Part shown: positions 3,086 through 16,919 of the stretch, one piece after another
Position numbering within the stretch: position 1 is the first letter of the stretch
Layout of the letters: each line of letters begins with the position of its first letter
Virus record (IMG/VR): IMGVR_UViG_3300009419_001319
Location: 1 to 25,275 of that record
DNA length: 25,275 bases
Strand: one strand, 5' to 3'
From: a virus
Notes under the pieces: model-generated
What the model saw: only the letters and a program-made list of their open reading frames with translations
What the model was told of the DNA's origin: nothing
Databases searched by the model: none
Translations under genes and position numbers: made by a program

Positions 3086-3826
3086 TTATACCTTGAGAAC
3101 TTGCGTGATATGTTTCAATATCTGTGATCTCACGATATCACTTGTGTCGAATTCGACACATTGAATTTCATTTTTTCTTGAGAAATCAGTGTCAAATGCT
3201 TCATATACGGAAGTAAATCCAGAGTCCTTGATATCTGCTTGAGCAGCATCGCCCAATACGAAGTATCGAGAATGTCTACCAAATCGTGTTAGGATGGTTG
3301 TTAGCTCTCCCTTTGTCATGTTTTGAGCTTCATCAATGATCACAGCACAGCGATGGAAGGTAAGACCTCTTACGAAATTTACTGGTATTGCTTTGATATA
3401 TTCGTTTTCCATCAAATAAGTGATATCTGTTTTAGACAAAATTTCATTCAATTTATCCAACATTGGCATAATATAAGGTAAGAATTTTTCATTCTCGTCA
3501 CCTTTAAGAAATCCAATTGAACGTGAAGAACTCTCCACTACAGAACGAATATAGATGATCTTATCAACATGCCCGTTCTTTAGAAGTTCTAAGGCTGAAA
3601 ATACAGCTAAGTGAGTCTTCGCGCTTCCTGCTGGTCCGTTGACAAATACCATATTATTCCTCGGACTTTGCGACATATAATAAAATTTCTGTTGGTTATC
3701 AGTCATTGGATAATTATTTTTCAAATATAAATTTGATAAATCAAACCCCTTTTTGATGTGTTCAGTATATTCTTCTGTCACATCCCGCTCTTTCCTCTTA
3801 CGAGGAGGTGTCTTTTTAACTGACAT
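3086..3826 (-). CDS. phoH: PhoH-like P-loop ATPase
   Basis: The 246-residue protein is a PhoH-family ATPase. It has Walker A GPAGSAKT (64-71), an R-rich region with YIRSVVE (92-98) typical of PhoH, Walker B IIDEAQN (163-169), and the third motif GDAAQAD (192-198). The basic N-terminus (KKTPPRKRKER) could bind nucleic acid. PhoH-like genes are common in marine T4-like phages; related PhoH2 proteins act as RNA helicases or ribonuclease partners, but the phage role is unsettled. This is the only minus-strand gene here, lying tail-to-tail with the genes on its left and head-to-head with the kinase gene on its right. A TTAAATAAT motif lies upstream of its ATG on the minus strand. Confidence 0.93.
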   Translation of the reverse strand: MSVKKTPPRKRKERDVTEEYTEHIKKGFDLSNLYLKNNYPMTDNQQKFYYMSQSPRNNMVFVNGPAGSAKTHLAVFSALELLKNGHVDKIIYIRSVVESSSRSIGFLKGDENEKFLPYIMPMLDKLNEILSKTDITYLMENEYIKAIPVNFVRGLTFHRCAVIIDEAQNMTKGELTTILTRFGRHSRYFVLGDAAQADIKDSGFTSVYEAFDTDFSRKNEIQCVEFDTSDIVRSQILKHITQVLKV

Positions 3827-3888: not shown

Positions 3889-4626
3889 ATGAAAATTGCG
3901 TTTAGTGGTAGCGGTAATGTCGGAAAAAGCACCTTAATTAAGTCTTTTTTGCAGAAATGGCAGATGTATAAAACACCGTTAAAAACATACAGAGATATTA
4001 TCAAAGAAAAAGATTTGAAACATTCTTCCAATACCACAGCAGAAACACAATTGCTTATCTTGGATTGGATGACACAGACCTTAGAAGTTAATAAGGATGA
4101 GAAATATGTCGTATATGATCGCTGTCCTTTGGATAATTTGGCATATACCCTCCATGCTACTGAAAAAGATTTGGTATCGGAGGATGTTCTCGGAATTACT
4201 GTAGATATTGTTCGACGTTCTCTGAAAAATCTAGATATTATTTTTTGGATTAAATACGATCCCACTATCAAAGTTGTAGCAGATGGATTACGCGATACTA
4301 ATTTGAATTATATTCAGGAGATTGATGATATCTTTGCTGGTCTTTATGAACAATATTCTGATCATCTGGAAAACACACCATTCTTCATCGCTGATGACAT
4401 GCCAGCAATTATTCCTATTGAAAATATTCCGAATCTTGATGATCGAATTGCTTGGGTTGGAGAATTTATCGATCAAAAAGGTGAATTAATTGAAACACAA
4501 GAAAGTGTTCTTGATCCTAAAAATCTGGAAATGATGGAACAAATGCTGAAAGATCAGGGTCAATGGATAGAAAAGGATAATCAATTCAAGAATCTCACGA
4601 ATCAAATCAAGAATTTCAAGATTTAA
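3889..4626 (+). CDS. P-loop nucleotide/nucleoside kinase-like protein (AAA_28-like)
   Basis: The 245-residue protein begins with a P-loop, GSGNVGKST (7-15), right after the first strand, as in deoxynucleoside/thymidylate kinases and the NadR-type nicotinamide riboside kinase fold. YDRCPLDNLAY (76-86) fits the DR(S/C)..D motif that binds the phosphate acceptor in these kinases. Residues 117-123 (DIIFWIK) match the strand after the helical region. The C-terminal 40 residues are Gln/Lys-rich and probably helical. The acceptor cannot be read from sequence; its place at the head of the Prs-HAD-NAMPT run makes a role in NAD or nucleotide metabolism attractive, but that is inference. It may be transcribed from the TTGATT/TAAATT promoter. 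Confidence 0.8.
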   Translation: MKIAFSGSGNVGKSTLIKSFLQKWQMYKTPLKTYRDIIKEKDLKHSSNTTAETQLLILDWMTQTLEVNKDEKYVVYDRCPLDNLAYTLHATEKDLVSEDVLGITVDIVRRSLKNLDIIFWIKYDPTIKVVADGLRDTNLNYIQEIDDIFAGLYEQYSDHLENTPFFIADDMPAIIPIENIPNLDDRIAWVGEFIDQKGELIETQESVLDPKNLEMMEQMLKDQGQWIEKDNQFKNLTNQIKNFKI

Positions 4627-4635
4627 AAACTAGGT

Positions 4636-4641
4636 TACAAT
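4636..4641 (+). promoter_or_regulatory. Possible -10 element TACAAT before the Prs-like gene
   Basis: TACAAT, preceded by TAGGT, ends six bases before the first of two consecutive ATG codons at 4648. No good -35 hexamer lies at the right distance (TTTCAA at 16 bases is a weak match). It fits the local pattern of -10-like elements placed almost against the start codon. Confidence 0.3.
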
Positions 4642-4647
4642 CGCAAC

Positions 4648-5577
4648 ATGATGAAACAAAAAAATCACATTACTTGGAAAAACGAAAGCGAAGAGCTTTA
4701 TGTTCTCAATCTGGATCAGAATTTTGATCCTTTTGAAAATTATGAAGGCGGAATTTTCAAAGTTAAGTTTTCCAAAGGACTTTTTCCAGCAGGAGAACCA
4801 AATTTTAAAATCGAATCATCGTTATATAATGGTAATATGGTGATCACGCACCGTATTAATTCGGTGTCGGATTTGATCGATATCGTAATAGCCAATGATG
4901 CTGTTCGCCGTATGGGGATCAAAAATATTGAATTGTTCATACCCTATTTCCCAGCAGCAAGACAAGATAGAATTTGTAATACAGGAGAGGCTTTTACTTT
5001 GAAAATCTTCGCGGATATGATCAACTCTTGTGGATTTGATAAGGTATCTATTCTGTGTCCGCATAGTGATGTTACACCAGCGTTGATCAATAATGTTCAT
5101 ATTTTAGATGAACGTGAATGGGTGTTGCAAAGTGTTTTGGAAATGTCGAATGGTAAGGATATTAATATCGTATGTCCTGATGCTGGTGCTGGTAAAAGAG
5201 TTCAGAAAATCATTGAGTATCTATCCAATCAAGATAGAACTCATCTTTATCATCTCGTCCGATGTGAAAAAATTCGAGACGTTAAAGACGGTTCTTTGAA
5301 AGAATTTTACGTTGGTGAAGGACTTGTTGAGGGCGCACCGACATTGATAATCGATGATATCAATTGTAAAGGTGGGACATTCTTGGGTCTTGCTGAAAAA
5401 TTGAAAGAGAAAAATTGTGGTTCTTTGGGATTGTTTACCACACACAGTGACTGCCAAGAAGGGGTTGAAAATGTTTCACGTAAATTTGACTTCGTTTTCA
5501 CGACCAATAGTAAGCAAAATTGGTCAGATATCTTAAAATTCGCTGGTTTGACAACTTTTAAAATCAAATACCAATGA
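4648..5577 (+). CDS. prs: Ribose-phosphate pyrophosphokinase-like enzyme (Prs, or NARP1 Adps)
   Basis: The 309-residue protein has the Prs fold: PYFPAARQDR (99-108), matching the PYFGYARQDR signature of PRPP synthetases; CPDAGAGKR (176-184), matching ..PD.G...R; KIRD (208-211) in the flexible-loop region; and the pyrophosphate/ribose loop IIDDINCKGGT (234-244), where cellular enzymes have VDD..DTGGT. It would make PRPP from ribose 5-phosphate and ATP. In the phage NARP1 pathway a Prs homologue (Adps) instead adds pyrophosphate to ADP-ribose; the altered loop (NCK for the usual D-T/A) leaves this open. The gene has a double ATG start (4648 and 4651) and overlaps the next gene by ATGA. Confidence 0.9.
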   Translation: MMKQKNHITWKNESEELYVLNLDQNFDPFENYEGGIFKVKFSKGLFPAGEPNFKIESSLYNGNMVITHRINSVSDLIDIVIANDAVRRMGIKNIELFIPYFPAARQDRICNTGEAFTLKIFADMINSCGFDKVSILCPHSDVTPALINNVHILDEREWVLQSVLEMSNGKDINIVCPDAGAGKRVQKIIEYLSNQDRTHLYHLVRCEKIRDVKDGSLKEFYVGEGLVEGAPTLIIDDINCKGGTFLGLAEKLKEKNCGSLGLFTTHSDCQEGVENVSRKFDFVFTTNSKQNWSDILKFAGLTTFKIKYQ

Positions 5578-5984
5578 GATATAATCATCCTTTTACAAAA
5601 TCTGAAAATTGTGCAGAGAGATTATTTCAACAATGGAAAGAACATAACTCTTTAATTATTGCAGTAGACTTTGATGACACAGTTTGCCCTTATAAAGACG
5701 ATTATGATACCTCAGAAGTTATCAATATCTTGAAAAGATGTAATGAAAATAATTTCAAATTGATTGTTTTCACTGCTTCGGAGAAAGAAAGATTTGAAAA
5801 AATTGAACAATTTTTTGAAGACAATCTCATTAAAATTCAAGGAATTAATAAAAATTTATTAGACAAAATTGGAAACGATGGTAAGATTTACTATAATCTT
5901 TTACTTTGTGATAGAGCGGGTTTAGGACAAGCTCTAGAAACTTTAGAAATACTTTTAGAAAAAATAAACAAAAATACAAAATAA
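5574..5984 (+). CDS. HAD-superfamily hydrolase-like protein
   Basis: The 136-residue protein carries HAD motif I as VDFDDTVCPY (31-40), with Asp32 the expected nucleophile and Asp34 the acid/base. Motif II is probably FTAS (66-69). LLLCDRAGLGQA (109-120) has one Asp at the motif IV place, where many relatives have two; there is little room for a cap domain. It would be a small phosphatase, substrate unknown. Being translationally coupled (ATGA) to the Prs-like gene and two bases before the NAMPT-like gene, it probably works on a sugar phosphate or nucleotide of that pathway. I recall similar small HAD proteins with the DRAGL ending beside NadV genes in other phages, without being able to check. 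Confidence 0.78.
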   Translation: MRYNHPFTKSENCAERLFQQWKEHNSLIIAVDFDDTVCPYKDDYDTSEVINILKRCNENNFKLIVFTASEKERFEKIEQFFEDNLIKIQGINKNLLDKIGNDGKIYYNLLLCDRAGLGQALETLEILLEKINKNTK

Positions 5985-5986
5985 AT

Positions 5987-7579
5987 ATGAAAAAGAAACC
6001 ACATCTCAGCTTCGACGGATACAAATGTGATCATCGTCGTCAATATCCAGAAAATAGTCTATTAGTCTTTTCTAATATGACTGCCCGTGGCACTCGCGTT
6101 AAAGGATTGAATAAAGTTATTTTCTTCTCATTACAGGCATTTATCAAGGAACATCTAATCCAAGAATGGGGTGATGAATTCTTTGCCAAGGATGTTGAAG
6201 AAGTCGTTGCAGATTACAATCGTCGTCTTAAAAATTATCTAGGACCAAATGGTATTGGTGAGCAACATATTCGTGATCTTCATGCTCTTGGATATCTCCC
6301 TCTTCAAATTTGGGCGTTGCCAGAAGGTTCTGCCGTTGATCTTAGAGTCCCCATGTTTGTCATGTGGAATACTGACGATAAATTTTTCTGGCTAACGAAT
6401 GCTATTGAAACCATTATCAGTGCTAATCTTTGGGGTGGTTGTACCAGTGCTACCACTGCTGTAATGTATCGTCAAATTCTCAATGAATGGGCTAATAAGA
6501 CTAACCCTGAAATGATCGATTTTGTCCCATGGCAAGGACACGACTTTAGTTTCCGTGGACACTTTGGATTTGATGCTGCTATTAAAAGCGGTGCTGCTCA
6601 TTTGCTCGCATTCACTGGCACAGATACAGTTCCTGCTATTGATTATCTCGAAGAGTATTATAATGCAGATTCTGATAAGGAACTTGTTGGCGGTAGCGTC
6701 TCAGCTACGGAACACAGTGTGATGTGTATGGGTGGAGTTGAAGATGAGATTGGTACATTCGATCGTATTATTAGCAAACTCTATCCAAGTGGTATTGTCT
6801 CGATTGTGTCTGATACTTGGGACTTCTGGAACGTTGTCAATCCTGATGGCGGCATTGCTGCTCAACTGAAGGATAAGATTATGGCTCGTGATGGCAAGGT
6901 TGTGATTCGTCCTGACTCTGGTGATCCAGTTAAGATTGTGACTGGCTATTTGCCTGATGAATATGAAGTTCGCGATGGAAAATATTACATCTTTGATATT
7001 GTATCGCATAAAAATGGCTCGCCAACACCTTACACCAAAGAAATCACTGAGCTTGAAGTCAAGGGTATGGTTGTGTGCCTTTGGGAAATCTTCGGTGGTA
7101 CCGAAACCAGCACTGGATATAAGCAGCTTGACAGCCACATCGGAGCAATCTACGGAGACTCCATTACGCTTGAACGTGCTACTCAAATTTGTGAACGTCT
7201 TGCCACTAAGGGATTTGCTTCTACCAACATTGTATATGGTATCGGTAGCTTCACCTATCAAGGTGCTGTAACTCCTGATGCTATTATTACTAGAGATACT
7301 CACGGGTTTGCTGTCAAATCCACCTATGGAGAAGTTCTAGTTAATGGTGAACGTCGAGGTATTGAAATTTTCAAAGACCCTAAGACTGATGATGGACTCA
7401 AAAAATCCGCTAAAGGTCTGATTGCGGTTTATGAAACCGAAGATGGATTTACTATGAAAGACCAAGCAACTTGGGATGATGTCAAGAACTGTGCTTTCGT
7501 GAACGTCTTCTCTGATGGAAAGCTTATGAAGGATTGGACTCTTGCTGAAATCCGTGAACGAGTTGCAAAGAATTTTTGA
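5987..7579 (+). CDS. nadV: Nicotinamide phosphoribosyltransferase-like enzyme (NadV/NAMPT, or NARP1 Namat)
   Basis: The 530-residue protein is a close NAMPT-family member, a little longer than the human enzyme (491). FRGHFGFDAA (189-198) covers the substrate-stacking region; FTGTDTVPAI (209-218) holds the Asp that selects nicotinamide; ATEHSVM (240-246) holds His243, equivalent to the autophosphorylated His of NAMPT; VIRPDSGDP (306-314) and SDTWDFWNVV (275-284) are family signatures. It would join nicotinamide to PRPP giving NMN, or to ADP-ribose pyrophosphate giving NAD+ directly if it is the NARP1 type. The Prs-like gene next door supplies the co-substrate. No NMN adenylyltransferase is visible in the window. 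The start is two bases after the upstream stop. Confidence 0.95.
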   Translation: MKKKPHLSFDGYKCDHRRQYPENSLLVFSNMTARGTRVKGLNKVIFFSLQAFIKEHLIQEWGDEFFAKDVEEVVADYNRRLKNYLGPNGIGEQHIRDLHALGYLPLQIWALPEGSAVDLRVPMFVMWNTDDKFFWLTNAIETIISANLWGGCTSATTAVMYRQILNEWANKTNPEMIDFVPWQGHDFSFRGHFGFDAAIKSGAAHLLAFTGTDTVPAIDYLEEYYNADSDKELVGGSVSATEHSVMCMGGVEDEIGTFDRIISKLYPSGIVSIVSDTWDFWNVVNPDGGIAAQLKDKIMARDGKVVIRPDSGDPVKIVTGYLPDEYEVRDGKYYIFDIVSHKNGSPTPYTKEITELEVKGMVVCLWEIFGGTETSTGYKQLDSHIGAIYGDSITLERATQICERLATKGFASTNIVYGIGSFTYQGAVTPDAIITRDTHGFAVKSTYGEVLVNGERRGIEIFKDPKTDDGLKKSAKGLIAVYETEDGFTMKDQATWDDVKNCAFVNVFSDGKLMKDWTLAEIRERVAKNF

Positions 7580-7580
7580 T

Positions 7581-8426
7581 ATGAGTGAAAAAATCGGAGT
7601 TGGTATTATCACATGTGGAAGAAAATCCATGTTTGAGAAGCTTTTCAATTCTCTTTTGGATTGTGGTGATCAAATTGATTATTTATATGTGGTTGAGGAT
7701 ACTAAAACCAATCGCAGTTATGATGATAATTACGCTGTCGATATTGCAAGATCTTGGAAGGGTGAACACATCGCAGTGTTCACCCCAACTGCAAATTTAG
7801 GTGTCGCCAAAGCTAAGAATAGCGCATTGGCGCATCTTCTTGATGCAGGATGTGATCATATCTTTCTGATTGAAGATGATATGTTTATTAAAAATCCAAA
7901 CATCTTCCAAGCATATATCGACGCTTCTAAGAAAAGTGGTATTCAACACTTCAATTTCTCACAACATGGTTTTGCTAATAAAATTGGCAATGATATGGGA
8001 GAGATTATTGCTAATCCCAAAATAACTATCAAGTATGATGATACTGGAATATCATTTTATCAACATTGTGTGGGGGCATTTTCATATTATTCAAGGGAAT
8101 GTTTAGATGATGTTGGGTTGATGGATGAAAGATATTATAATGCTTGTGAACATGTTGATCACACGTATGAGATTATTAAAAAAGGATATCATCCTCCTTT
8201 TTGGTGGTTTGCTGATATTGAAAATTCTTGGGAATATATCGGTGATGATGGTTGGTCGATTGAAACATCTTCGATTTGTTCCGACCAGTCTTTCATGGAA
8301 AATGTTAAAAAAGCTGATGATGTTTTCGTCGAAAAACATGGTCACTTACCAATACAAACACATCTAGTTGAAATGGATGATTTTGGAAAATCTTTAAAAG
8401 AAATTAAGAAAAAATGGACGATTTGA
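7581..8426 (+). CDS. GT-A fold glycosyltransferase (GT2-like)
   Basis: The 281-residue protein opens with GVGIITCGRKSMFEKL, the usual first strand and helix of a GT-A transferase. ANLGVAKAKN (71-80) is the ribose/phosphate contact region, and LIEDDMF (96-102) is the DxD-type metal site. MDERYYNACEHVDH (181-194) matches the acceptor-side catalytic region, with a Glu/Asp base. It would move a sugar from a nucleotide donor to a glycan or protein. I chose ATG 7581, one base after the upstream stop, over a TTG at 7542 inside the NAMPT gene. It opens the sugar island and overlaps the next gene by 13 bases. Confidence 0.85.
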   Translation: MSEKIGVGIITCGRKSMFEKLFNSLLDCGDQIDYLYVVEDTKTNRSYDDNYAVDIARSWKGEHIAVFTPTANLGVAKAKNSALAHLLDAGCDHIFLIEDDMFIKNPNIFQAYIDASKKSGIQHFNFSQHGFANKIGNDMGEIIANPKITIKYDDTGISFYQHCVGAFSYYSRECLDDVGLMDERYYNACEHVDHTYEIIKKGYHPPFWWFADIENSWEYIGDDGWSIETSSICSDQSFMENVKKADDVFVEKHGHLPIQTHLVEMDDFGKSLKEIKKKWTI

Positions 8427-9103
8427 CGATTGTAACGTGTAATTATAATACACCTGATCTTATTATAAATCTTAAAAGATCTATAGAAAAACATTGTCCA
8501 GTATTACCGAAAATACTGATAATAGATACTGGTGAACATCCAATGATGGATTTTCAAAACGTTAAAATGTTGAATACTTCACATGGAAATGCTGTCAATG
8601 CAGCGTTTGATTTAGTGAAAACAAAATACGTGTTACTCGTTGATTCCGATGTTTTATTTTTGAAAGATATAAAAAAACCATATGAGAAATTCAAAGAAGG
8701 TGGATTTGTATTGATGGGAGAAGTTGTCGGTGATCGTGGTGGGAAGTCATTATACCCAAGAGTCAATCCGTGGTTTTGTTTTATAGATTTAGAACAATTA
8801 AAAGAGCATGACATTAATTTTTATGATCATCATAGAACCAAAGAAATAAAATCCGAAAGAATATATGATATTGGATCTACGATGTTCGAAGATGTTATCA
8901 AAGCGGATTTAACAGTTGCAAATGCTAAAATGGAGAATAAATATTTCAAACATTACGAAGGTATGTCTTGGAGAGTTCAGAAATATAACCCTAACAATGG
9001 AGACACTGATATTGATATCGGAGGGACTCATGATAGTGTTCAACTCTACAAATTGGGTTTACAAGTGAGAGAACGATATAACAAAGATGTTGCTGATTTA
9101 TGA
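8414..9103 (+). CDS. GT2-like glycosyltransferase
   Basis: The 229-residue protein begins LTIVTCNYNTPDLI, a classic GT2 first strand, continues with ILIIDTG (34-40) and GNAVNAAFD (58-66), and has the metal-binding DSD in LLVDSDVLFL (74-83). DIGSTMFEDV (about 154-163) is a plausible acceptor-side segment. Donor and acceptor cannot be assigned. It starts inside the previous gene and shares ATGA with the next one, so the three are probably translated together. Confidence 0.85.
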   Translation: MDDLTIVTCNYNTPDLIINLKRSIEKHCPVLPKILIIDTGEHPMMDFQNVKMLNTSHGNAVNAAFDLVKTKYVLLVDSDVLFLKDIKKPYEKFKEGGFVLMGEVVGDRGGKSLYPRVNPWFCFIDLEQLKEHDINFYDHHRTKEIKSERIYDIGSTMFEDVIKADLTVANAKMENKYFKHYEGMSWRVQKYNPNNGDTDIDIGGTHDSVQLYKLGLQVRERYNKDVADL

Positions 9104-9717
9104 AAAAATTAAACGAATATTTTGATAAAATTTATTGTATAAATTTGGATAGACGACCAGATAGATGGGAGAAATGCTCCAATCTCTTTGAAAGAGATGG
9201 TATAATTGTTGACAGATTTTCTGCTATCGATAAAAATAATATTAAAAATGAATCGAAAATAGCAAATGGACCTCTAGCTTGCTTATCTAGCCATTGGAAT
9301 ATTTTGAATAAAGCTCTAAAAGAAGGATATGAAAAAATACTAATATTTGAAGATGATATATCATTTGATGAAGGATTAAATTCTTTTTTCGAGAATAACT
9401 TAGTGGATGTTCCCGATGATTGGAAATTTTTATACTTGGGTGGTAATCATTTGAATGGTTTGACACATGTTAAAAATAATGTATTTAGAATGGTGTCATC
9501 TCTGACAACACATGCATATGCTATCAAATGTGATATTATACCTCAAATACTACACTTGATCGCTGAAGCGAATGCACCTGTAGATGTTTATTATGCAGCT
9601 TTTCATAGAGCATTTCCATCTTACGTTTTGAAAAACGGTGAAAAGTCCGTAGCATGGCAGGATGATGATTATAGTGATGTTGATGATTCTAAATGTGATT
9701 ATACTTGGTTGAAGTAA
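9100..9717 (+). CDS. GT25-family glycosyltransferase (LPS-type)
   Basis: The 205-residue protein has the three GT25 landmarks: YCINLDRRPDRW (12-23), GPLACLSSHWNIL (57-69) and ILIFEDD (80-86), as in LOS/LPS galactosyltransferases of the LgtB/LpsA type and in collagen galactosyltransferases. HAYAIKCDIIPQIL (about 137-150) is the usual following motif, and the protein ends with an Asp-rich WQDDDYSDVDDSKCDY tail. GT25 enzymes use UDP-sugars and EDD binds the metal. It is somewhat short for the family but looks complete. ATGA overlap with the upstream gene. Confidence 0.88.
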   Translation: MKKLNEYFDKIYCINLDRRPDRWEKCSNLFERDGIIVDRFSAIDKNNIKNESKIANGPLACLSSHWNILNKALKEGYEKILIFEDDISFDEGLNSFFENNLVDVPDDWKFLYLGGNHLNGLTHVKNNVFRMVSSLTTHAYAIKCDIIPQILHLIAEANAPVDVYYAAFHRAFPSYVLKNGEKSVAWQDDDYSDVDDSKCDYTWLK

Positions 9718-9718
9718 T

Positions 9719-10420
9719 ATGGCGGATAAACCACAATTATCATTATGTGTTCCTTGCTACGAAATGAGTGGGGTTGGGGCGAAGTATTTGAGCGAGTCAT
9801 TATCAATTATAAGAACACAGGAATGCGATCTATCGAATGTTGAAATTATCGTTTCTGACCATTCTCTTGATAATGAAATTGAGAAGTGTTGTGATAATTT
9901 TAAAGATTTGAATATTAAATATTTTAAAAATTCTTATGGGCGTGGATCGATGTCGGCAAATTTAAATAGCTGCATCAAACATAGCTCTGGAAAATATATA
10001 AAACCGCTGTTTCAAGATGATCTTTTTTATTACTCAAAATCATTGAAACATATTTTGAGTAATTTGAGTGATCCTTGGTATGCTCACGAATATACACATT
10101 TAAATGGTGATTTAAATACATACTACAATCAAAGAACTCCGTATAGTAATAATAATTTTATCGATGGTGTTAATTCATTAGGACCACCAAGTGTAATATA
10201 TTTTATCAATGATGATAATTTCTTCGATGAGAAACTTTCATATATGATGGATACAGAATTCTATCACAGAATGATCACAAAATATGGACAACCGACTATT
10301 TTGAAAAGTGGCATTCCTTTGGGAGTAGTAAGAACTTGGGCTGGTCAAACAACTCAAGCAACCACTAGTAATATGATTGACAAGGAACATATTTACATTA
10401 AATCGAAATATAATAAATGA
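9719..10420 (+). CDS. GT2-family glycosyltransferase
   Basis: The 233-residue protein starts LSLCVPCYEMSG (7-18), a GT2 opening strand. EIIVSDHS (42-49) holds the nucleotide-binding Asp, SMSANLNSCI (77-86) the helix contacting the donor, and KPLFQDDLFY (95-104) the DxD-like metal site. MDTEFYHRM (about 180-190) fits the acceptor-side (E/D)D.E.. motif. The donor is not assignable. It begins one base after the upstream stop and ends with an ATGA overlap into the GT11-like gene. Confidence 0.86.
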   Translation: MADKPQLSLCVPCYEMSGVGAKYLSESLSIIRTQECDLSNVEIIVSDHSLDNEIEKCCDNFKDLNIKYFKNSYGRGSMSANLNSCIKHSSGKYIKPLFQDDLFYYSKSLKHILSNLSDPWYAHEYTHLNGDLNTYYNQRTPYSNNNFIDGVNSLGPPSVIYFINDDNFFDEKLSYMMDTEFYHRMITKYGQPTILKSGIPLGVVRTWAGQTTQATTSNMIDKEHIYIKSKYNK

Positions 10421-11328
10421 TTACAACAAATTTAACAGGAAATTTAGGGAATCACATGTGGCAATATGCCGTATGTAGAACTATTGCAGAACATAAAGGT
10501 TATGAGTGGGGTATCAATTCTTCCCCCACTCATGATTATTTCAATGGGGATAATCAGATGAAATTCATGAATATTGATTTCGGTAAACCAGTTGAGGGTA
10601 TAACCAAAGAGTTTCACGAGAGATGGTTAAATATTCATCACGTTGATCAAGTCAATATTACCGTCTTGGATAAGCGTCTTTACGATATTGAAGATAATAC
10701 TATAATGTTGGGTGATAATGGTGCGTTTGGGGGATTATTCCAATCAGAAGATTATATTATAGATAGAAAGTTTGATGTCGAACGATGGTTCTCGATTAAT
10801 GATGATTATAGGAAAAAATACGACGATCAATTATTGGATATGGGTATTTCTTTGGATGATGACTTATGTGTAATTAATTTTAGAGGGGGGGAATATACAG
10901 GACTATATAATGTTTTGTTGAGGAGAGAATATTGGAGGGATTCAATAAATCATATGTTGAAAAACAATTCAAATATGAAATTCTTGGTTATTACTGATGA
11001 TATAAATCTTAGTAAAACATTCATGCCGTTTGATATCCCAACTGTTCATATTGATGTTGGATTTGATTTTTATGTAGTGAATCAAGCTAAATGGTTGATT
11101 ATATCCAATTCATCTTTTGGATGGTGGGCAGCGTGGTTGAATACAAAATGTAAAGAGATCATAGCTCCAAAATATTGGGCTAGACACAATGTAAGCAATG
11201 GTTACTGGGCAACTGGAGATGTATATTCTAGATTTTTTAATTATATTGATCGTGATGGAAATATGTTTAGTTATGATGAGTGTAGAGAAGAAGCTCAACA
11301 ATTTTACAAACAACACAATATATTATGA
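10417..11328 (+). CDS. Divergent GT11-like (fucosyltransferase-type) glycosyltransferase
   Basis: The 303-residue protein has the GT-B layout of GT11 alpha-1,2-fucosyltransferases: GNLGNHMWQYA (8-18) for the usual GGLGNQLFQYA, and SNSSFGWWAAW (230-240) for SNSSFSWWAAW. The central motif, normally HxRRxDY, is here NFRGGEY (154-160), keeping one Arg but lacking the second and the Asp. The donor may still be GDP-fucose or a related GDP-sugar, but the change makes this less certain. It is distinct from the canonical GT11 gene at 16185. ATGA overlaps join it to both neighbours. Confidence 0.8.
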   Translation: MITTNLTGNLGNHMWQYAVCRTIAEHKGYEWGINSSPTHDYFNGDNQMKFMNIDFGKPVEGITKEFHERWLNIHHVDQVNITVLDKRLYDIEDNTIMLGDNGAFGGLFQSEDYIIDRKFDVERWFSINDDYRKKYDDQLLDMGISLDDDLCVINFRGGEYTGLYNVLLRREYWRDSINHMLKNNSNMKFLVITDDINLSKTFMPFDIPTVHIDVGFDFYVVNQAKWLIISNSSFGWWAAWLNTKCKEIIAPKYWARHNVSNGYWATGDVYSRFFNYIDRDGNMFSYDECREEAQQFYKQHNIL

Positions 11329-12191
11329 GAAAAATCTACGACTGCTTTATATTTTTTAATGAATTAGATTTATTAGAACTTCGCTTCAATATACTAGATG
11401 AATATGTCGATTATTTCGTGTTGTGTGAAGCAGATGTTACCCATAGTGGTCTTCCAAAATCTTATATTTTTGAAGATAATAAAGAGAGATTTTCCAAATT
11501 TCTCCATAAAATAATTCACATTAAAATTGATGATATTCCAACAGATTTCACAAACCTGCCAACAATAGATACTCCCAAATCATTCGATGAAGAATGTTTA
11601 AAGGATATATACAAATTTATAAATGACACTGAATTATTTATACCTGAAATACACCCCCATTATGGGCGGGATTTCTTTCAAAAAGAATCTGTAAGAAGGG
11701 GATTAGTGAATTGTTCAGACGATGATATAATCATATTGTCCGATTGTGATGAGATCCCGAACCCTGAAATTTTATCAAAAGTTGATAAGTTTATTGATAT
11801 GGAGCCGTTCTTCACCCTCCAGCAAACTACTTATTATTACTATATAAATTTATTGAAAGAATACAATTGGAGAGGTTCTCGGATCAGTAGATTTAAAAAT
11901 ATTAAACACTATTCATTTAATGAACTACGAGCGCAAAAAAATTGTGAGCTATCAAATGGCGGGTGGCACTTTAGTTTTATGGGTGATCAAGATCACGTTA
12001 AAAATAAAATAAAGGCTTATTCACACCAAGAACTCAATAATCAAGATATTCTCGATAAAATTAATTTCAATATTGAGAATAATATCGATCCGTTTTCAAG
12101 AAGTAAACTTGAATTAGTCGCAGTAGATGAATCTTATCCAAAATATTTGTTAGATAATATTGAAAAATATCACCACATGATTAAACAATAA
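11325..12191 (+). CDS. GT17-family glycosyltransferase
   Basis: The 288-residue protein matches GT17 (the family of MGAT3, beta-1,4-N-acetylglucosaminyltransferase, and many bacterial and viral members). It begins IYDCFIFFNELDLLELR (4-20), continues with CEADVTHSG (34-42) and the metal-binding SDCDEIPNP (139-147), and later GGWHFSFMG (about 216-224). GT17 proteins use UDP-GlcNAc in eukaryotes; the bacterial and phage donors are unknown. Length is normal. It is coupled by ATGA to the GT11-like gene upstream. Confidence 0.88.
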   Translation: MRKIYDCFIFFNELDLLELRFNILDEYVDYFVLCEADVTHSGLPKSYIFEDNKERFSKFLHKIIHIKIDDIPTDFTNLPTIDTPKSFDEECLKDIYKFINDTELFIPEIHPHYGRDFFQKESVRRGLVNCSDDDIIILSDCDEIPNPEILSKVDKFIDMEPFFTLQQTTYYYYINLLKEYNWRGSRISRFKNIKHYSFNELRAQKNCELSNGGWHFSFMGDQDHVKNKIKAYSHQELNNQDILDKINFNIENNIDPFSRSKLELVAVDESYPKYLLDNIEKYHHMIKQ

Positions 12192-12194
12192 AAT

Positions 12195-12839
12195 ATGATC
12201 AATCTTCCAAATGTTACATTAATTGCCATGACATCTGTGAAAATTCCACAGACTATAAAAGCTTTGCAGTATAGTATGCGTGGTATAAATTTTGGGGCTG
12301 TTAAAATTGTTTCTGACATTATACCCGAAAATCTTCCTGATGAAATCACTCATGAATTCACTGAAAAAATGTCAAATATAGACGAGTGGAATCATGATAT
12401 AATTTATAAATTAGGGAAACATGTGAATACAGAATTTTTAATTTTGATTCATGATGATGGGTTTATAATTAATCCTGAAATGTGGAGAGATGAATTTTTA
12501 AAATATGATTACATCGGCGCACCATGGCCGCTTCCTAATGATGATTTCTCATTCAGAGACATAAATGGTGAGTTAATACGAGTCGGGAATAGTGTTTCTT
12601 TGAGAAGTAAAAGATTGACAGATTTAGCATCAGAATTAAAATTAGAGTGGAAACCTTTCCATGGATTTACTAACGAAGATGGATTTATATGTGTCAATTA
12701 TCGTCACGTATACAAAGAGCATGGGATGAAATTTGCTGATATTGATGTTGCTAAATATTTTTCACATGAAACTCAATTACCAGAAACTATAGGGATTAAA
12801 CCACTTGCTTTTCATGGTAAAAAAGGAATTTTTGATTAA
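12195..12839 (+). CDS. DUF5672-type putative glycosyltransferase
   Basis: The 214-residue protein fits the DUF5672 pattern seen in polysaccharide clusters: FLILIHDDGFIINP (81-94), carrying a likely metal-binding HDD; YDYIGAPWP (104-112); VGNSVSLRSKRL (130-141); and EDGFICVNY (161-169). The order is that of a short GT-A fold with the acceptor/catalytic Glu-Asp near the end. Activity has seldom been tested for this family. It lies three bases after the GT17 gene. Confidence 0.8.
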   Translation: MINLPNVTLIAMTSVKIPQTIKALQYSMRGINFGAVKIVSDIIPENLPDEITHEFTEKMSNIDEWNHDIIYKLGKHVNTEFLILIHDDGFIINPEMWRDEFLKYDYIGAPWPLPNDDFSFRDINGELIRVGNSVSLRSKRLTDLASELKLEWKPFHGFTNEDGFICVNYRHVYKEHGMKFADIDVAKYFSHETQLPETIGIKPLAFHGKKGIFD

Positions 12840-12840
12840 T

Positions 12841-13488
12841 ATGAACAAAGAATTAGTGATATCGTTATATGATAGAGATATAAGTTGGATCAGTAAAATA
12901 AATCCAGATGTATCTGTTAAAATATATAGAAAAGGGAATTTGATAAGTCATTCAAATGAGATATTTTTGGAAAACAATATAGGTAGAGATGTTCACACGT
13001 TTTTTTACCACATAGTATCCCAATATGAAAATTTAGCAGATTATACATTTTTTTCACAAGATTATCCATTCGATCATATTGAAAATTATACAGATATTAT
13101 AAATGGAGACATAGAATTTTGGAATGAGAAAGCTAGTCAACATTTCGAAGAATATTGGGGGTATCATTGGAATAGCATAGGAACAATGTGGGCTTTACAG
13201 CCATCTAATCAATTTGGTGGAAAGATATTAACATGTGATAAAACAGGAAGTGGAATGTGGGTAAGACCTCTTAATTTAGAGGATTCTTGGAAATTGTTTT
13301 TCGAATGTAAATGTCCTGAATTTTTTGAATTCACTCCAGGCGCACATTTTGGAATTTCCAAAAATCAAATAAAATTAAGACCCTTGACATTTTACAAGAA
13401 GGTATTAGAATTCTTGGAAAATGTGGAAGATGCTCCTTATGTAATTGAGAGATTCGAACCTTATATTTTTAATTCAACTATAAAATAA
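12841..13488 (+). CDS. DUF3431-like protein of the glycan cluster
   Basis: The 215-residue protein has the DUF3431 signature NIGRDVHTFFYHI (46-58) followed by YTFFSQDYPFDH (68-79), and later FTPGAHFGIS (about 163-172), where family members have Y..GAqF.V. The family is found in fungi, plants and sugar clusters and is thought to be transferase-like, but its reaction is unknown. I chose ATG 12841 over a frame that opens at 12805 inside the previous gene, because the shorter start sits one base after the upstream stop and begins directly with the first strand. Confidence 0.78.
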   Translation: MNKELVISLYDRDISWISKINPDVSVKIYRKGNLISHSNEIFLENNIGRDVHTFFYHIVSQYENLADYTFFSQDYPFDHIENYTDIINGDIEFWNEKASQHFEEYWGYHWNSIGTMWALQPSNQFGGKILTCDKTGSGMWVRPLNLEDSWKLFFECKCPEFFEFTPGAHFGISKNQIKLRPLTFYKKVLEFLENVEDAPYVIERFEPYIFNSTIK

Positions 13489-13490
13489 TT

Positions 13491-14777
13491 ATGATCTTAA
13501 AAGAAGATATTAAAACACTGGTAGGCAATCATGTATCGCCTTATATCTATAATGCTAAAGAATTTAAACATGGAAAAACTCCAATATATTATTCTGGTCC
13601 ATACTGGGATAATCGAGAAACTGAAGCAGCATTAGATTCATTTTTAAATGGTAAGTGGATCACTGCTGGAGAAAAGGTTCATAAATTTGAAAGTCAATTT
13701 TCTAAAAGGTTTAATACCAAATATGGGCATATGGTGAATTCTGGAAGTTCTGCGAATCTTGTTTTAATTTCAGCATTGAAACGACGATTTAATTGGCAAG
13801 ACGGAGATGAAGTGATTGTATCTCCTGTTGGATTCGCCACTACCGTTTCTGTTATTTATCAAAATAAATTAACTCCTGTATTTGTTGATATTGAATGGGA
13901 TACTTTAAACTTCGATCTAGAACAAATAGAATCCAAAATAACAAATAAAACAAAAGCTATTTTTGTTTCTCCAGTTTTAGGAAATCCGCCAGATATGGAT
14001 AAGTTAATCGCTATTAGCGAAAAACATGGGATTCTTTTGGTAGGTGATAATTGCGATAGTTTGGGAAGTAAGTGGGATGGGAAATATCTCAATGAATACT
14101 ATGTAGCGTATTCCAATTCTTTTTATCCTGCTCATCACATCTCGACAGGAGAGGGTGGTATGGTGTGTTCAAACGACATTGAACTTAAAAAATTATTCGT
14201 GAGTTTGAGTTGGTGGGGTAGAGATTGTTACTGTGTGGGGGCTGCAAATTTGCTCCCTTGTGGAACATGTGGTAACAGATTTGATAATTGGCTGGAGAAT
14301 TTTGACGGTGTTATAGATCATAAATATGTTTTTTCTGAAATGGGGTATAATTTAAAACCTTTAGATTTACAAGGTGCTATTGGTTTGGTTCAGCTTGAAA
14401 AATTGGATGAAATGGAATCCAATAGAAGAAATTCTAATCGTAAAATATCAGAAATTTTCAATAAACACATCTCCAATATTAGAAGCCCGAAAGTTTTAGA
14501 AAAAGCAGATCCTTGTTGGTTCGGGACACCATTCATCTGCGAAGATATTGGTGTTAAGCATAGAATCGTCAAGCATTTAGAAGATAATAAAATTCAAACA
14601 AGAAATTATTTTGCTGGAAATATTCTCTTACATCCTGGATATAAAGACTTGGATGATTATAGAAAATATCCTGAAGCTAACAAAGTGTTGAATTCTGTAT
14701 TTTTTGTCGGGGCTGCACCGCATTACACGCAGCCAGTATTTGATTATATCGAAGACGTAATTTCAAAATTCCAATGA
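13491..14777 (+). CDS. rfbH: RfbH/E1-type CDP-4-keto-6-deoxyglucose 3-dehydratase
   Basis: The 428-residue protein is a DegT/AHBA-family enzyme: NSGSSAN (83-89) and DNCDSLGS (186-193) hold PMP/PLP. At the usual Schiff-base lysine it has His215 in SFYPAHH (210-216), the hallmark of 3-dehydratases rather than aminotransferases. Cysteines follow C188-X57-C246-X1-C248, then C257 and C260; from memory the [2Fe-2S] motif of Yersinia E1 is C-X57-C-X1-C-X7-C. The ending DHKYVFSEMGYNLKP (303-317 region shortened here) is also RfbH-like. It would remove the 3-hydroxyl of CDP-4-keto-6-deoxyglucose, on the way to abequose, paratose, tyvelose or ascarylose. The reductase partner, cytidylyltransferase and 4,6-dehydratase are not in the window, so host enzymes would be needed. 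ATGA overlap with the SDR. Confidence 0.9.
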   Translation: MILKEDIKTLVGNHVSPYIYNAKEFKHGKTPIYYSGPYWDNRETEAALDSFLNGKWITAGEKVHKFESQFSKRFNTKYGHMVNSGSSANLVLISALKRRFNWQDGDEVIVSPVGFATTVSVIYQNKLTPVFVDIEWDTLNFDLEQIESKITNKTKAIFVSPVLGNPPDMDKLIAISEKHGILLVGDNCDSLGSKWDGKYLNEYYVAYSNSFYPAHHISTGEGGMVCSNDIELKKLFVSLSWWGRDCYCVGAANLLPCGTCGNRFDNWLENFDGVIDHKYVFSEMGYNLKPLDLQGAIGLVQLEKLDEMESNRRNSNRKISEIFNKHISNIRSPKVLEKADPCWFGTPFICEDIGVKHRIVKHLEDNKIQTRNYFAGNILLHPGYKDLDDYRKYPEANKVLNSVFFVGAAPHYTQPVFDYIEDVISKFQ

Positions 14778-15589
14778 TATCTGTATTTGGTGGTAGTGGT
14801 TTTATAGGACAGGCTTTTTGTGATAAAAAGAAGTCTGATGTAGCAATTATAGATAGAAATTCTTTCACTCCTATTAGTGATAAAGTTTTGTATTTGATAA
14901 GCACTGTTGATAATTACAACGTTTTAACGGATTCTAAGTTAGATATAAATACAAATCTGATTCATCTTATGAACGTATTGGATGAATGTAGAAAAATAAA
15001 AGGTATGGAATTTACCTTTATAAGTTCTTGGTTTGTATATGGGGACACCACCCTTCCAGCTAGAGAGGATTCGATTTGCAATCCAAGAGGATTTTATTCT
15101 ATAACTAAATATGCGGCTGAATTGTTAATTCATTCTTACTGTAAAACATTCAATATTGATTATAAAATAATCAGATTGGGTAATGTGGTTGGAAATTCTG
15201 ATTCCAAAATTTCAAAAAAGAAAAACGCTCTTCAATATTTGATAAATGAGATGAGGGAAAACAACCCAATCAATCTTTATAATAATGGTAATTTTTATAG
15301 AGATTATATTCACATAGATGATGTCGTGTCTGGTATTGAATTTTTAATGGACAAAGGGCAAAATGGTGAAACGTATAACTTATCAGGTGGAAAGCCAATT
15401 TTATTCAGAGATATCATAGATTATGCATATCAAGCACTGGATTCTTCCAGCAAAATAGGAAACATGGAACCATCGGATTTCCATAAAATAGTACAAGTTG
15501 AATCAATGTATTTGGATACATCGAAAATAAATGATATGGGATTTCACACAAAAAATAATATAAATGAAATTATAAATAAATTATTATGA
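14774..15589 (+). CDS. Sugar-nucleotide SDR (epimerase/reductase), perhaps paratose/abequose synthase-like
   Basis: The 271-residue protein is an extended short-chain dehydrogenase: NAD(P) loop GGSGFIG (6-12), catalytic SSWFVYG around residues 88-94, YSITK (Tyr108, Lys112), IIRLGNVVG (about 132-140) and YRDYIHIDDVV (about 176-186), the last typical of sugar-nucleotide enzymes. Next to an RfbH-type dehydratase and joined to it by ATGA, it would naturally be the 4-keto reductase that finishes CDP-abequose or CDP-paratose; a 4,6-dehydratase or epimerase role cannot be excluded. It is slightly short, with a brief substrate-binding end. Confidence 0.82.
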   Translation: MISVFGGSGFIGQAFCDKKKSDVAIIDRNSFTPISDKVLYLISTVDNYNVLTDSKLDINTNLIHLMNVLDECRKIKGMEFTFISSWFVYGDTTLPAREDSICNPRGFYSITKYAAELLIHSYCKTFNIDYKIIRLGNVVGNSDSKISKKKNALQYLINEMRENNPINLYNNGNFYRDYIHIDDVVSGIEFLMDKGQNGETYNLSGGKPILFRDIIDYAYQALDSSSKIGNMEPSDFHKIVQVESMYLDTSKINDMGFHTKNNINEIINKLL

Positions 15590-16182
15590 AAACATTGAAA
15601 CAAATTTTAAATGAATATAAACTGAATATTTTCGATGAAGAAAATATGAGAATTAATCCTAATTACGGGACAGATAAAGGTCATCCAAAATCTTATATAG
15701 ATAAATTTTATGAAGATTTCTTTAAAAAATTTAGAGACAATAATAACACTATAGTTGAAATTGGAGTTAGAAGCGGAGCATCTTTAAAATTATGGAGGGA
15801 ATATTTTTCAGAAGATAGTAAAATATATGGTTTAGATAATCTATATGATAAAAATGAACATTCTGTGCCAATAAATAATGAATGGATTTCTGGGAAAAAT
15901 GTTGAATATATAGTAGGAGACGCATACACCGAGGAAATAGCAAATAAATTTGAAAATATAACGATTCTTATCGATGATGGTCCCCATTCTCCAGATTCTC
16001 ATGTCAGATTGTTAGAATTATATTCTGATAAAATAGAAAAGGGAGGTGTCATTATAATAGAAGATGTTGGTTATGATCCGAACGGATTACTCAACATTTT
16101 GAAAAAAACTCCAAATGCAGAATTTTCATATTTCGATTTCGGAACATACTACGATAACAAAATTATATTATTTCAATTTTAA
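15586..16182 (+). CDS. Class I SAM-dependent methyltransferase (macrocin O-methyltransferase-like)
   Basis: The 198-residue protein has a Rossmann methyltransferase core: YGTDKG (28-32 region), VEIGVRSGASLKLW (57-70) as SAM motif I, YGLD (81-84) as motif II, GDA (111-113) and IDDGPHS (129-135), the metal/acceptor segment of the macrocin/demethylmacrocin O-methyltransferase and cephalosporin-hydroxylase-like group. It probably O-methylates a sugar of the glycan made by this cluster, a common capping step. ATGA overlap with the SDR supports a shared pathway. The substrate is not readable from sequence. Confidence 0.82.
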   Translation: MKTLKQILNEYKLNIFDEENMRINPNYGTDKGHPKSYIDKFYEDFFKKFRDNNNTIVEIGVRSGASLKLWREYFSEDSKIYGLDNLYDKNEHSVPINNEWISGKNVEYIVGDAYTEEIANKFENITILIDDGPHSPDSHVRLLELYSDKIEKGGVIIIEDVGYDPNGLLNILKKTPNAEFSYFDFGTYYDNKIILFQF

Positions 16183-16184
16183 AT

Positions 16185-16919
16185 ATGAATAGTTGCTACG
16201 TAAATGTTATTGGTGGCGTGGGCAATCAGTTATTTCAAATAGCTGCTGGCTATGCTTATGCCAAGAAACATGGTAAGAAATTGATCGTCAACCCTTATAA
16301 TTGGTTTGCTGGTCAAGGAACCAATCCTTTAGTGTATAAGGATACAATTTTCAAGAATTTTGAATATGGTAATTGTTTCACTAGAGATGTGATTGGTATC
16401 CATGAAAAAAGATTTAATTATGATGAGTTACCATTCCATGTAGGGTCTGTATCATTGAATGGGTATTTTCAATCTTTGAAATATTTCGAAGAATATAAAG
16501 ATGAATTTATTTCTTTATTGAACTTGCCAGAAGTTGATTCAGAAATTGATATAGCATTTCATATTAGAAGAGGGGATTATCTCAAACATGCTACAATTCA
16601 TCATGTTTGTCATACAGAATACTTTGAAAAGTTCTTTGAAAAATACAAAGGGCAAAATATTAAAGTATTCACTGATGATCCAAATCATGTAATCAACGAA
16701 TTTCCGAATTATAAATTTGAAATATTACATTCCGATTCTGATATTAAAGATCTTGCATACATGTCAAATTGTGATATCGTAGTGGGGAGCAACTCTACCT
16801 TTTCTTGGTGGGCAGCTTTGATTGGTGATAAGACATCTTATTTCCCTTCCAAGTGGTTTAGCGATGGTGGAGAAGCAACTGATATTTACTACGATAAAAT
16901 GATTAAATGTGATGTTTGA
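16185..16919 (+). CDS. GT11 alpha-1,2-fucosyltransferase family protein
   Basis: The 244-residue protein keeps all GT11 motifs: GGVGNQLFQIA (10-20), HIRRGDYL (126-133), where the Arg pair binds the GDP-sugar, VFTDDP (161-166) and SNSTFSWWAAL (202-212). It would transfer fucose from GDP-L-fucose to galactose or a related sugar in alpha-1,2 linkage. No GDP-fucose synthesis gene is visible here, so the donor must come from the host or another part of the genome. It is slightly shorter than bacterial FutC-type enzymes. It starts two bases after the methyltransferase and overlaps the DNA methyltransferase by eight. Confidence 0.9.
   Translation: MNSCYVNVIGGVGNQLFQIAAGYAYAKKHGKKLIVNPYNWFAGQGTNPLVYKDTIFKNFEYGNCFTRDVIGIHEKRFNYDELPFHVGSVSLNGYFQSLKYFEEYKDEFISLLNLPEVDSEIDIAFHIRRGDYLKHATIHHVCHTEYFEKFFEKYKGQNIKVFTDDPNHVINEFPNYKFEILHSDSDIKDLAYMSNCDIVVGSNSTFSWWAALIGDKTSYFPSKWFSDGGEATDIYYDKMIKCDV

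What the first reader, a model, noticed from the sequence alone, without database searches (positions are those of the whole stretch)
3889..7579. Four-gene NAD+ block: possible NARP1-type defence evasion with extra kinase and HAD partners
A Prs-like and a NAMPT-like gene flank a HAD protein and follow a P-loop kinase, tightly packed in one direction. Phage Prs/NAMPT pairs are known to act either as ordinary NAD salvage or as NARP1 (Adps + Namat), which rebuilds NAD+ from ADP-ribose and nicotinamide after NADase defences. No NMN adenylyltransferase is visible, as NARP1 would predict, and the Prs pyrophosphate loop (DDINCKGGT) is altered. The kinase and HAD protein may be unrecognised parts of the pathway.
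Basis: partly seen in the sequence, partly recalled or inferred. Interest (0 to 1): 0.75.

Follow-up and report, generated by a model that had tools for sequence, protein, structure and literature searches.

The report
Phage NAD-rebuilding cassette with phosphatase
This virus of bacteria carries a three-gene cassette predicted to rebuild the cell's NAD+ after bacterial defences destroy it, and its middle gene, a small predicted phosphatase not described in any paper I could search, travels with the two known enzymes across many phages and bacteria, so it is probably a missing part of the pathway.

Summary
The genes are real and correctly placed. The Prs-like and NAMPT-like proteins group with characterised Adps and Namat (NARP1), not with canonical Prs/NAMPT. 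The NAMPT-like protein keeps 18 of the 20 NAD+-contacting residues of SPbetaL1 Namat, including 4 of 5 at the adenine site (a canonical phage NAMPT keeps 1 of 5). No NMN adenylyltransferase is found in the window or in a 184-kb relative carrying the same cassette. The unit is three genes, not four. The kinase is a core gene of this phage group: only 2 of 43 related loci have the cassette beside it, and relatives preserve the empty site (8-bp AAGAATTT repeat at the junctions). The HAD is the real find. In 66 of 79 non-redundant relatives it lies within 5 kb of a Prs-like and/or NAMPT-like gene, on the same strand, in five gene orders, in phages and in Bacteroidota, Paenibacillus and Clostridium genomes. 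It matches no curated family at its cut-off. Such loci recurrently carry ADP-ribose-handling genes (NrtR, NADAR, macrodomain, ADP-ribosylglycohydrolase). Best reading: a NARP1 variant with a third component, a capless HAD phosphatase that probably returns phosphorylated ADP-ribose to ADP-ribose. The association is shown; the substrate is inferred.

The parts
4648..5577 (+). Prs-like gene, predicted Adps (ADP-ribose pyrophosphate synthetase), 309 aa
   Evidence: phrog_619 1e-64; below the TIGR01251 cut-off, 97.9 against 113 bits; groups with SPbetaL1 Adps and ICP1 NrsA and away from E. coli Prs, 100/99; shares HSDVTPAL with both
5574..5984 (+). Capless HAD-family phosphatase, 136 aa, candidate third NARP1 component
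   Evidence: phrog_1238 1e-19; catalytic D32, D34, T67, K104, D113 present, D112 replaced by C; AlphaFold2 pLDDT 94; nearest fold BT_0820 2obb, Z 11.1; genomic linkage
5987..7579 (+). NAMPT-like gene, predicted Namat (nicotinamide ADP-ribose transferase), 530 aa
   Evidence: best solved relatives are SPbetaL1 Namat 9W5X/9W5W, 3e-143; Xcc Nampt 5e-53; 18 of 20 NAD+-contact residues kept; tree
4617..7575 (.). Inserted segment (cassette) absent from the empty site of close relatives
   Evidence: blastn against L057, L062, L060, L063 and L093 breaks at 4616 and resumes at 7568
4609..4616 (.). Left copy of 8-bp direct repeat AAGAATTT at the insertion junction
   Evidence: one copy at the empty site of L057/L062/L093
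7568..7575 (.). Right copy of 8-bp direct repeat AAGAATTT, overlapping the end of the Namat gene
3889..4626 (+). P-loop (AAA_28) kinase: core phage gene upstream of the cassette, judged NOT part of it
   Evidence: 41 of 43 related loci lack the cassette beside it
7581..8426 (+). Glycosyltransferase: core gene on the far side of the insertion, not part of the cassette
   Evidence: phrog_2456; directly follows the kinase in empty-site relatives

Best explanation
Positions 4648-7579 hold a three-gene NARP1-type NAD+ reconstitution cassette (Adps-HAD-Namat) inserted between two core genes of a tailed phage. When a host NADase defence splits NAD+ into ADP-ribose (ADPR) and nicotinamide, Adps adds pyrophosphate from ATP to ADPR, giving ADPR-PP, and Namat joins nicotinamide to ADPR-PP, giving NAD+ directly without an NMN adenylyltransferase. 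The HAD is a dedicated capless phosphatase of the pathway. Most likely it removes a phosphate from a phosphorylated ADPR (ADPR-2'-phosphate from NADP+ cleavage, or ADPR-1''/2''-phosphates from RNA-end repair or ADPR-PP decay) so that Adps can use it. Shown here: gene content, relationship of both enzymes to Adps/Namat, conserved contact residues, insertion as a unit, recurrent linkage of the HAD. Inferred from the published NARP1 work: the two reactions and the anti-defence role. Inferred without direct evidence: the HAD substrate (I give that step alone about 0.35). The stated confidence is for the three-gene NARP1-type cassette with the HAD as a functional partner.
For: NAMPT-like: best solved match is SPbetaL1 Namat; 18/20 NAD+ contacts kept, including R40, F392, T398 and D400 of the adenine clamp described in PMC12774641, against 1/5 for KVP40 NadV and 2/5 for pNAD1 NadV; separated from canonical NAMPT by a long, fully supported branch. 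Prs-like: with SPbetaL1 Adps and ICP1 NrsA, away from E. coli Prs and a Prs lying next to an NMNAT-like gene. No PF01467 in the window, in the 184-kb relative with the same cassette, or in a 197-kb relative. Cassette inserted as a unit. HAD: 54 of 80 viral loci and 44 of 61 bacterial loci have both partner genes within 5 kb, five orders, all on the same strand; 66 of 79 non-redundant HADs are linked, against 2 of 43 kinase loci. Neighbours in such loci: NrtR (31 loci), NADAR (7), macrodomain (5), ADP-ribosylglycohydrolase (4). PMC9503650 proposed on other grounds that phosphatases linked to ADPR-handling genes act on ADPR phosphates.
Against: The Namat SCH motif has a 7-residue insert (GAVTPDA) and the second aromatic (Y396) becomes I433. 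pNAD1 NadV nests on the Namat side of the tree, and an Acinetobacter NAMPT-like with a full Namat motif sits next to an NMNAT gene, so tree side and motif are not perfect markers. The HAD also occurs beside a canonical NAMPT, Prs and NMNAT-like gene in Mucilaginibacter, so it is not exclusive to NARP1; and characterised NARP1 works with two genes (PMC12774641), so the HAD is not essential everywhere. The closest NAMPT relatives outside the cassette clade (L017, L020-L026, L030) lack the HAD. Motif IV of this HAD has C in place of the first Asp.
Confidence: 0.78

Rival explanations
1. Ordinary NAD salvage (NARP2-like): a true Prs makes PRPP and a true NAMPT makes NMN, which the host's NMNAT turns into NAD+. 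The HAD is then incidental or a nucleotidase.
For: Window is a fragment; Namat can also use PRPP in vitro (PMC12774641); the HAD occurs beside canonical NAMPT+Prs+NMNAT-like gene in Mucilaginibacter; one of two adenine-contacting aromatics of the SCH is lost.
Against: Both proteins group with characterised Adps/Namat; R5P loop altered as in Adps; adenine-clamp residues R37, F422, T435 and D437 kept; no NMNAT in 184-kb and 197-kb relatives.
Confidence: 0.15
2. The HAD is not a pathway enzyme acting on ADPR but a house-cleaning phosphatase for decay or by-products common to both routes (e.g. PRPP/ADPR-PP decay products, AMP, nicotinamide-nucleotide phosphates). This competes only with the substrate step of the best explanation.
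For: Occurs with both Namat-type and canonical NAMPT operons and with nicotinamidase/NAD-synthase variants; fold nearest to BT_0820 of unknown function, then the T4 Pnkp 3'-phosphatase domain.
Against: Recurrent ADPR-releasing neighbours (macrodomain, NADAR, ADP-ribosylglycohydrolase) and the ADPR-sensing regulator NrtR point to ADPR itself.
Confidence: 0.4
3. One reading: the kinase is part of the NAD pathway (e.g. nicotinamide riboside kinase).
For: AAA_28 is also the kinase domain of NadR, and there is a weak hit to phrog_3462 NadR (0.0015); adjacent and co-directional.
Against: 41 of 43 kinase relatives lack the cassette beside them; the kinase is a neighbour of phoH and a glycosyltransferase; no NAMPT in 8 of 10 long kinase-bearing contigs and ~90 kb away in another; clean empty site.
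Confidence: 0.03

Closest known systems
NARP1 (Adps + Namat) of Bacillus phage SPbetaL1, ICP1 NrsAB, mycobacteriophage DyoEdafos, Paenibacillus foliorum
   Same: Same two enzyme families, adjacent on one strand; same NAD+ contact residues; no NMNAT needed
   Different: HAD gene between them; Namat has a 7-aa insert in the SCH motif and a ~30-aa insert at 322-353; Y396 becomes I
NARP1 + RyDEP of DyoEdafos (PMC13232231)
   Same: Accessory gene inserted in a NARP1 operon that supplies it with ADPR
   Different: RyDEP is a glycosidase opening cADPR; here the accessory is a HAD phosphatase, found in many phages and bacteria
KVP40-type NAD salvage (NadV + NMNAT; NARP2)
   Same: NAMPT-fold transferase using nicotinamide
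   Different: KVP40 NadV has GMGGGLLQ..DRD in place of GSFTYQ..TRD and 1/5 adenine-site residues; partnered with NMNAT
BT_0820 HAD family (NF046079; PDB 2obb)
   Same: Nearest capless HAD by sequence profile (8.5e-9) and fold (Z 11.1)
   Different: ~20% identity; 20 bits against a 165-bit cut-off, so not a member; function of BT_0820 unknown; this family has a conserved N-terminal RLxxE helix and DDRAGL motif

Membership tests
Namat (NARP1 transferase) | Groups with characterised Namat, apart from canonical NAMPT | tested here: met
   Tree of 52, branch 100/100; pNAD1 NadV on the same side is a caveat
Namat (NARP1 transferase) | NAM/ribose catalytic residues conserved | tested here: met
   14/15, A362 to S as in ICP1 NrsB
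Namat (NARP1 transferase) | SCH motif GSX-T/S-X-Q/N-X-N/V-TRD with aromatics at positions 3 and 7, plus an R/K stacking residue in the SCL | tested here: inconclusive
   F422 and R37 present, TRD present; 7-aa insert and I at position 7
Namat (NARP1 transferase) | Makes NAD+ from ADPR-PP and nicotinamide | not testable with these tools
   needs enzyme assay
Adps (NARP1 synthetase) | Groups with characterised Adps, apart from canonical Prs | tested here: met
   100/99 split from E. coli and Mucilaginibacter Prs; only 3 canonical rows
Adps (NARP1 synthetase) | R5P 5'-phosphate loop DTGGT altered | tested here: met
   DDINCKGGT; SPbetaL1 DDLSSFGGT; ICP1 DDICDGAAS
Adps (NARP1 synthetase) | Makes ADPR-PP from ADPR and ATP | not testable with these tools
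   needs enzyme assay
NARP1 pathway | Adps and Namat encoded together, no NMNAT required | tested here: met
   the window's own full genome is not held
NARP1 pathway | Restores NAD+ and phage growth against NADase defence | not testable with these tools
   needs infection or co-expression test
BT_0820-type HAD phosphatase (NF046079) | Score above curated cut-off | tested here: not met
   20.4 against 165 bits
HAD superfamily phosphatase | Catalytic DxD, T, K, D and Rossmannoid fold | tested here: met
   D32, D34, T67, K104, D113; model and fold search

The most novel reading that the evidence does not exclude
NARP1 is commonly a three-component pathway: a dedicated, so far undescribed HAD phosphatase family converts phosphorylated ADPR (above all ADPR-2'-phosphate from NADP+) to ADPR, letting phages and bacteria rebuild NAD+ from products that two-gene NARP1 cannot use.
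Probability: 0.33. Interest if true: 0.78.

Novelty: new variant of a known kind. Interest (0 to 1): 0.62.

Why it matters
NARP1 was described as two enzymes. A third gene that follows them through five gene orders and several bacterial and phage lineages means that the pathway as drawn is probably incomplete, and points to a metabolite (a phosphorylated ADP-ribose) that matters when NADase defences act. It gives a directly testable enzyme of 136 residues and a searchable marker for NAD+-rebuilding operons. The related sub-variant with nicotinamidase and NAD synthase suggests a second, deamidated route to NAD+ that would also bypass the mononucleotide.

Tried and rejected
Kinase as a pathway member: rejected by synteny and the empty site. 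phmmer of the kinase against solved structures: nothing at E 0.1. Full match of the published Namat motif: not met at position 7, so the claim rests on the tree plus the other residues. The Nature 2024 NARP1 paper (Osterman et al.) is not held, so whether it mentions the HAD in a figure cannot be excluded; the full-text searches I ran and term searches of PMC9503650 and PMC13232231 show no mention of a HAD gene in Adps/Namat operons. Macrodomain and HAD as interchangeable partners: rejected as a simple rule, since L046 has both. Rfam scan of the insert that splits the NAMPT gene in L042: nothing. Lak-B7 and Lak-C1: HAD+Prs adjacent, NAMPT elsewhere in the genome; in LR756501 no NAMPT found. 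A structure model of the NAMPT-like protein was not run: without a ligand it would not decide ADPR-PP against PRPP.

Full report
The window is a 25,275-base linear fragment of a tailed-phage genome held in IMG/VR. It carries a portal protein and a tail sheath stabilizer at its right end, a phoH gene on the minus strand at 3086-3826, and a long run of glycosyltransferases and sugar enzymes to the right of the finding.

A kinase (3889-4626), a Prs-like protein (4648-5577), a small HAD protein (5574-5984) and a NAMPT-like protein (5987-7579) follow each other on the plus strand. The last three are coupled: a 4-bp overlap, then a 2-bp gap.

The unit is three genes. Among 43 IMG/VR loci related to the kinase, only two contigs besides the window have Prs, HAD and NAMPT next to it; nearly all others have phoH, kinase and glycosyltransferase with nothing between kinase and glycosyltransferase. 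Of ten long contigs with the kinase (85-207 kb), eight have no NAMPT-like gene and one has it about 90 kb away. Against relatives such as L057 and L062 the window's homology stops at 4616 and resumes at 7568 with 98% identity, and the 8 bases AAGAATTT, single in the relatives, stand on both sides of the cassette. The kinase keeps its last codons in both states. The cassette is therefore an accessory insertion and the kinase a core gene.

The two enzymes look like Adps and Namat. The best solved relatives of the NAMPT-like protein are the SPbetaL1 Namat structures (E about 3e-143), far ahead of Xanthomonas or human Nampt (5e-53 to 1e-47) (the entries are identified in PMC12774641). That paper lists 20 residues that touch NAD+; the window protein has 18 of them, including R40, F392, T398 and D400 around the adenine (numbering of SPbetaL1). 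The canonical phage NAMPT of KVP40 has one of the five adenine-site residues and pNAD1 NadV two. Two deviations must be told: Y396 is I433, and a 7-residue insert (GAVTPDA) stands in the selectivity-clamp motif. The insert is shared by near relatives, while L025 and L050 of the same clade have the ordinary GSYTYQYVTRD. In a maximum-likelihood tree the window groups with SPbetaL1 Namat and ICP1 NrsB and not with KVP40, Novosphingobium or Methylosinus NAMPTs; in the two plasmids the NAMPT gene sits with an NMNAT gene. The Prs-like protein groups with SPbetaL1 Adps and ICP1 NrsA against E. coli Prs and a Mucilaginibacter Prs that lies beside an NMNAT-like gene; it shares HSDVTPAL with both and has the ribose-5-phosphate loop altered as they do. 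No PF01467 gene is in the window, in the 184-kb relative with the same cassette, or in a 197-kb relative.

The HAD is the main new result. An unselected tblastn search of phage records found it in 27 records: Lak megaphages, crAss-like phages, Vibrio, Aeromonas and others. In VPT02 and PhAER-3 it sits between Prs and NAMPT as in the window; in three crAss-like phages the order is NAMPT-HAD-Prs; in Phass-1 Prs-NAMPT-HAD. With a profile of 13 members (three of them chosen by proximity to NAMPT), scans of viral contigs and of one genome per prokaryote species gave 80 viral and 61 true bacterial loci; 54 and 44 of them have both a Prs-like and a NAMPT-like gene within 5 kb, and 11 more have one. 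All 126 linked loci (some redundant) have the genes on one strand, 109 of them with frames within 50 bases or overlapping. In a non-redundant set, 66 of 79 are linked and the ten true orphans are scattered over the tree; two orphans inspected have a nicotinamidase-like or NAD-synthase-like gene nearby, judged by eye from the sequence. The lists are the best 80 of each scan, not complete counts.

The HAD family falls below every curated Pfam and NCBIfam cut-off I could check. Its residues R16, L17, D32, F33, D34, K104, D113 and R114 are invariant in 55 members. AlphaFold2 gives pLDDT 94; the nearest solved fold is BT_0820 of Bacteroides (2obb, Z 11.1), then the 3'-phosphatase domain of T4 polynucleotide kinase (Z 8.1). 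It has no cap domain, which by general HAD knowledge suits bulky substrates.

The neighbourhood suggests the substrate class. Around 125 non-redundant Prs+NAMPT loci (90 with HAD) recurrent neighbours are NrtR (31 loci), NADAR (7), macrodomain (5) and ADP-ribosylglycohydrolase (4), confirmed by Pfam on representatives. NrtR senses ADPR, and the other three release or bind ADPR (and general knowledge). Iyer et al. 2022 (PMC9503650) noted NADAR beside NadV/NadM and proposed that phosphatases tied to ADPR-handling genes act on ADPR phosphates. RyDEP is a precedent for an accessory gene that feeds ADPR into NARP1 (PMC13232231). I therefore infer that the HAD makes ADPR from a phosphorylated ADPR. 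The Mucilaginibacter operons, with canonical-type NAMPT, Prs and an NMNAT-like gene next to NrtR and HAD, show that the HAD is not tied to Namat alone. If the NMNAT there carries a Nudix domain, as NadM does, that route too would start from ADPR, so the inference survives, but it is not proven.

Literature: NARP1 biochemistry and anti-defence action are known (PMC12774641, PMC11559045, PMC13232231). None of the held texts I searched mentions this HAD gene in Adps/Namat operons; the original Nature paper is not held. Verdict: a new variant of a known kind, with a well-supported third gene whose substrate remains to be tested.

Noticed in passing
L010:1893-6331 (Phage Phass-1); L138, L160, L197, L211, L226: Sub-variant with nicotinamidase (PF00857) and NAD synthase (PF02540) beside Prs-like, NAMPT-like and HAD; the transferases of all six have SPbetaL1 D215 changed to A or S and A242 to S, and no PF01467 gene is in the three phage records searched. 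It suggests a deamidated route: nicotinate + ADPR-PP to NaAD, then NAD synthase.
   Followed up: partly
L202:157-5348, L213:478-5339: Mucilaginibacter operon NrtR, NMNAT-like, canonical-type NAMPT, Prs, HAD: the HAD also accompanies the ordinary NMN route.
   Followed up: partly
L042:5152-6000 (G002:170550-171398): NAMPT-like gene split between residues ~250 and ~254 by an 849-bp insert near the catalytic region; possible intron or decayed intein, no Rfam match.
   Followed up: partly
L017:7657-8124, L022:7911-8381, L024:8370-8861, L030:5301-5804: A nucleoside 2-deoxyribosyltransferase-like gene (PF15891) near NAMPT in 12 loci, mostly the sister clade of the window that lacks the HAD: another candidate accessory gene.
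   Followed up: no
L046:4381-4851, L033:5491-5925, L029:9413-9880: Macrodomain genes inside or beside Prs/NAMPT operons; L046 has macrodomain and HAD together.
   Followed up: partly
L014:3099-6316: Record named Acinetobacter phage MD-2021a looks like bacterial chromosome (iron transport, AraC, TauE genes) with a Prs, NAMPT, NMNAT/Nudix operon whose NAMPT carries the full Namat motif and 5/5 adenine-site residues: that motif may not always mean absence of the NMN route.
   Followed up: partly
window 7581-16919: Long run of glycosyltransferases, a DegT-type aminotransferase and an epimerase-like gene downstream of the cassette, a phage-encoded sugar-modification cluster.
   Followed up: no
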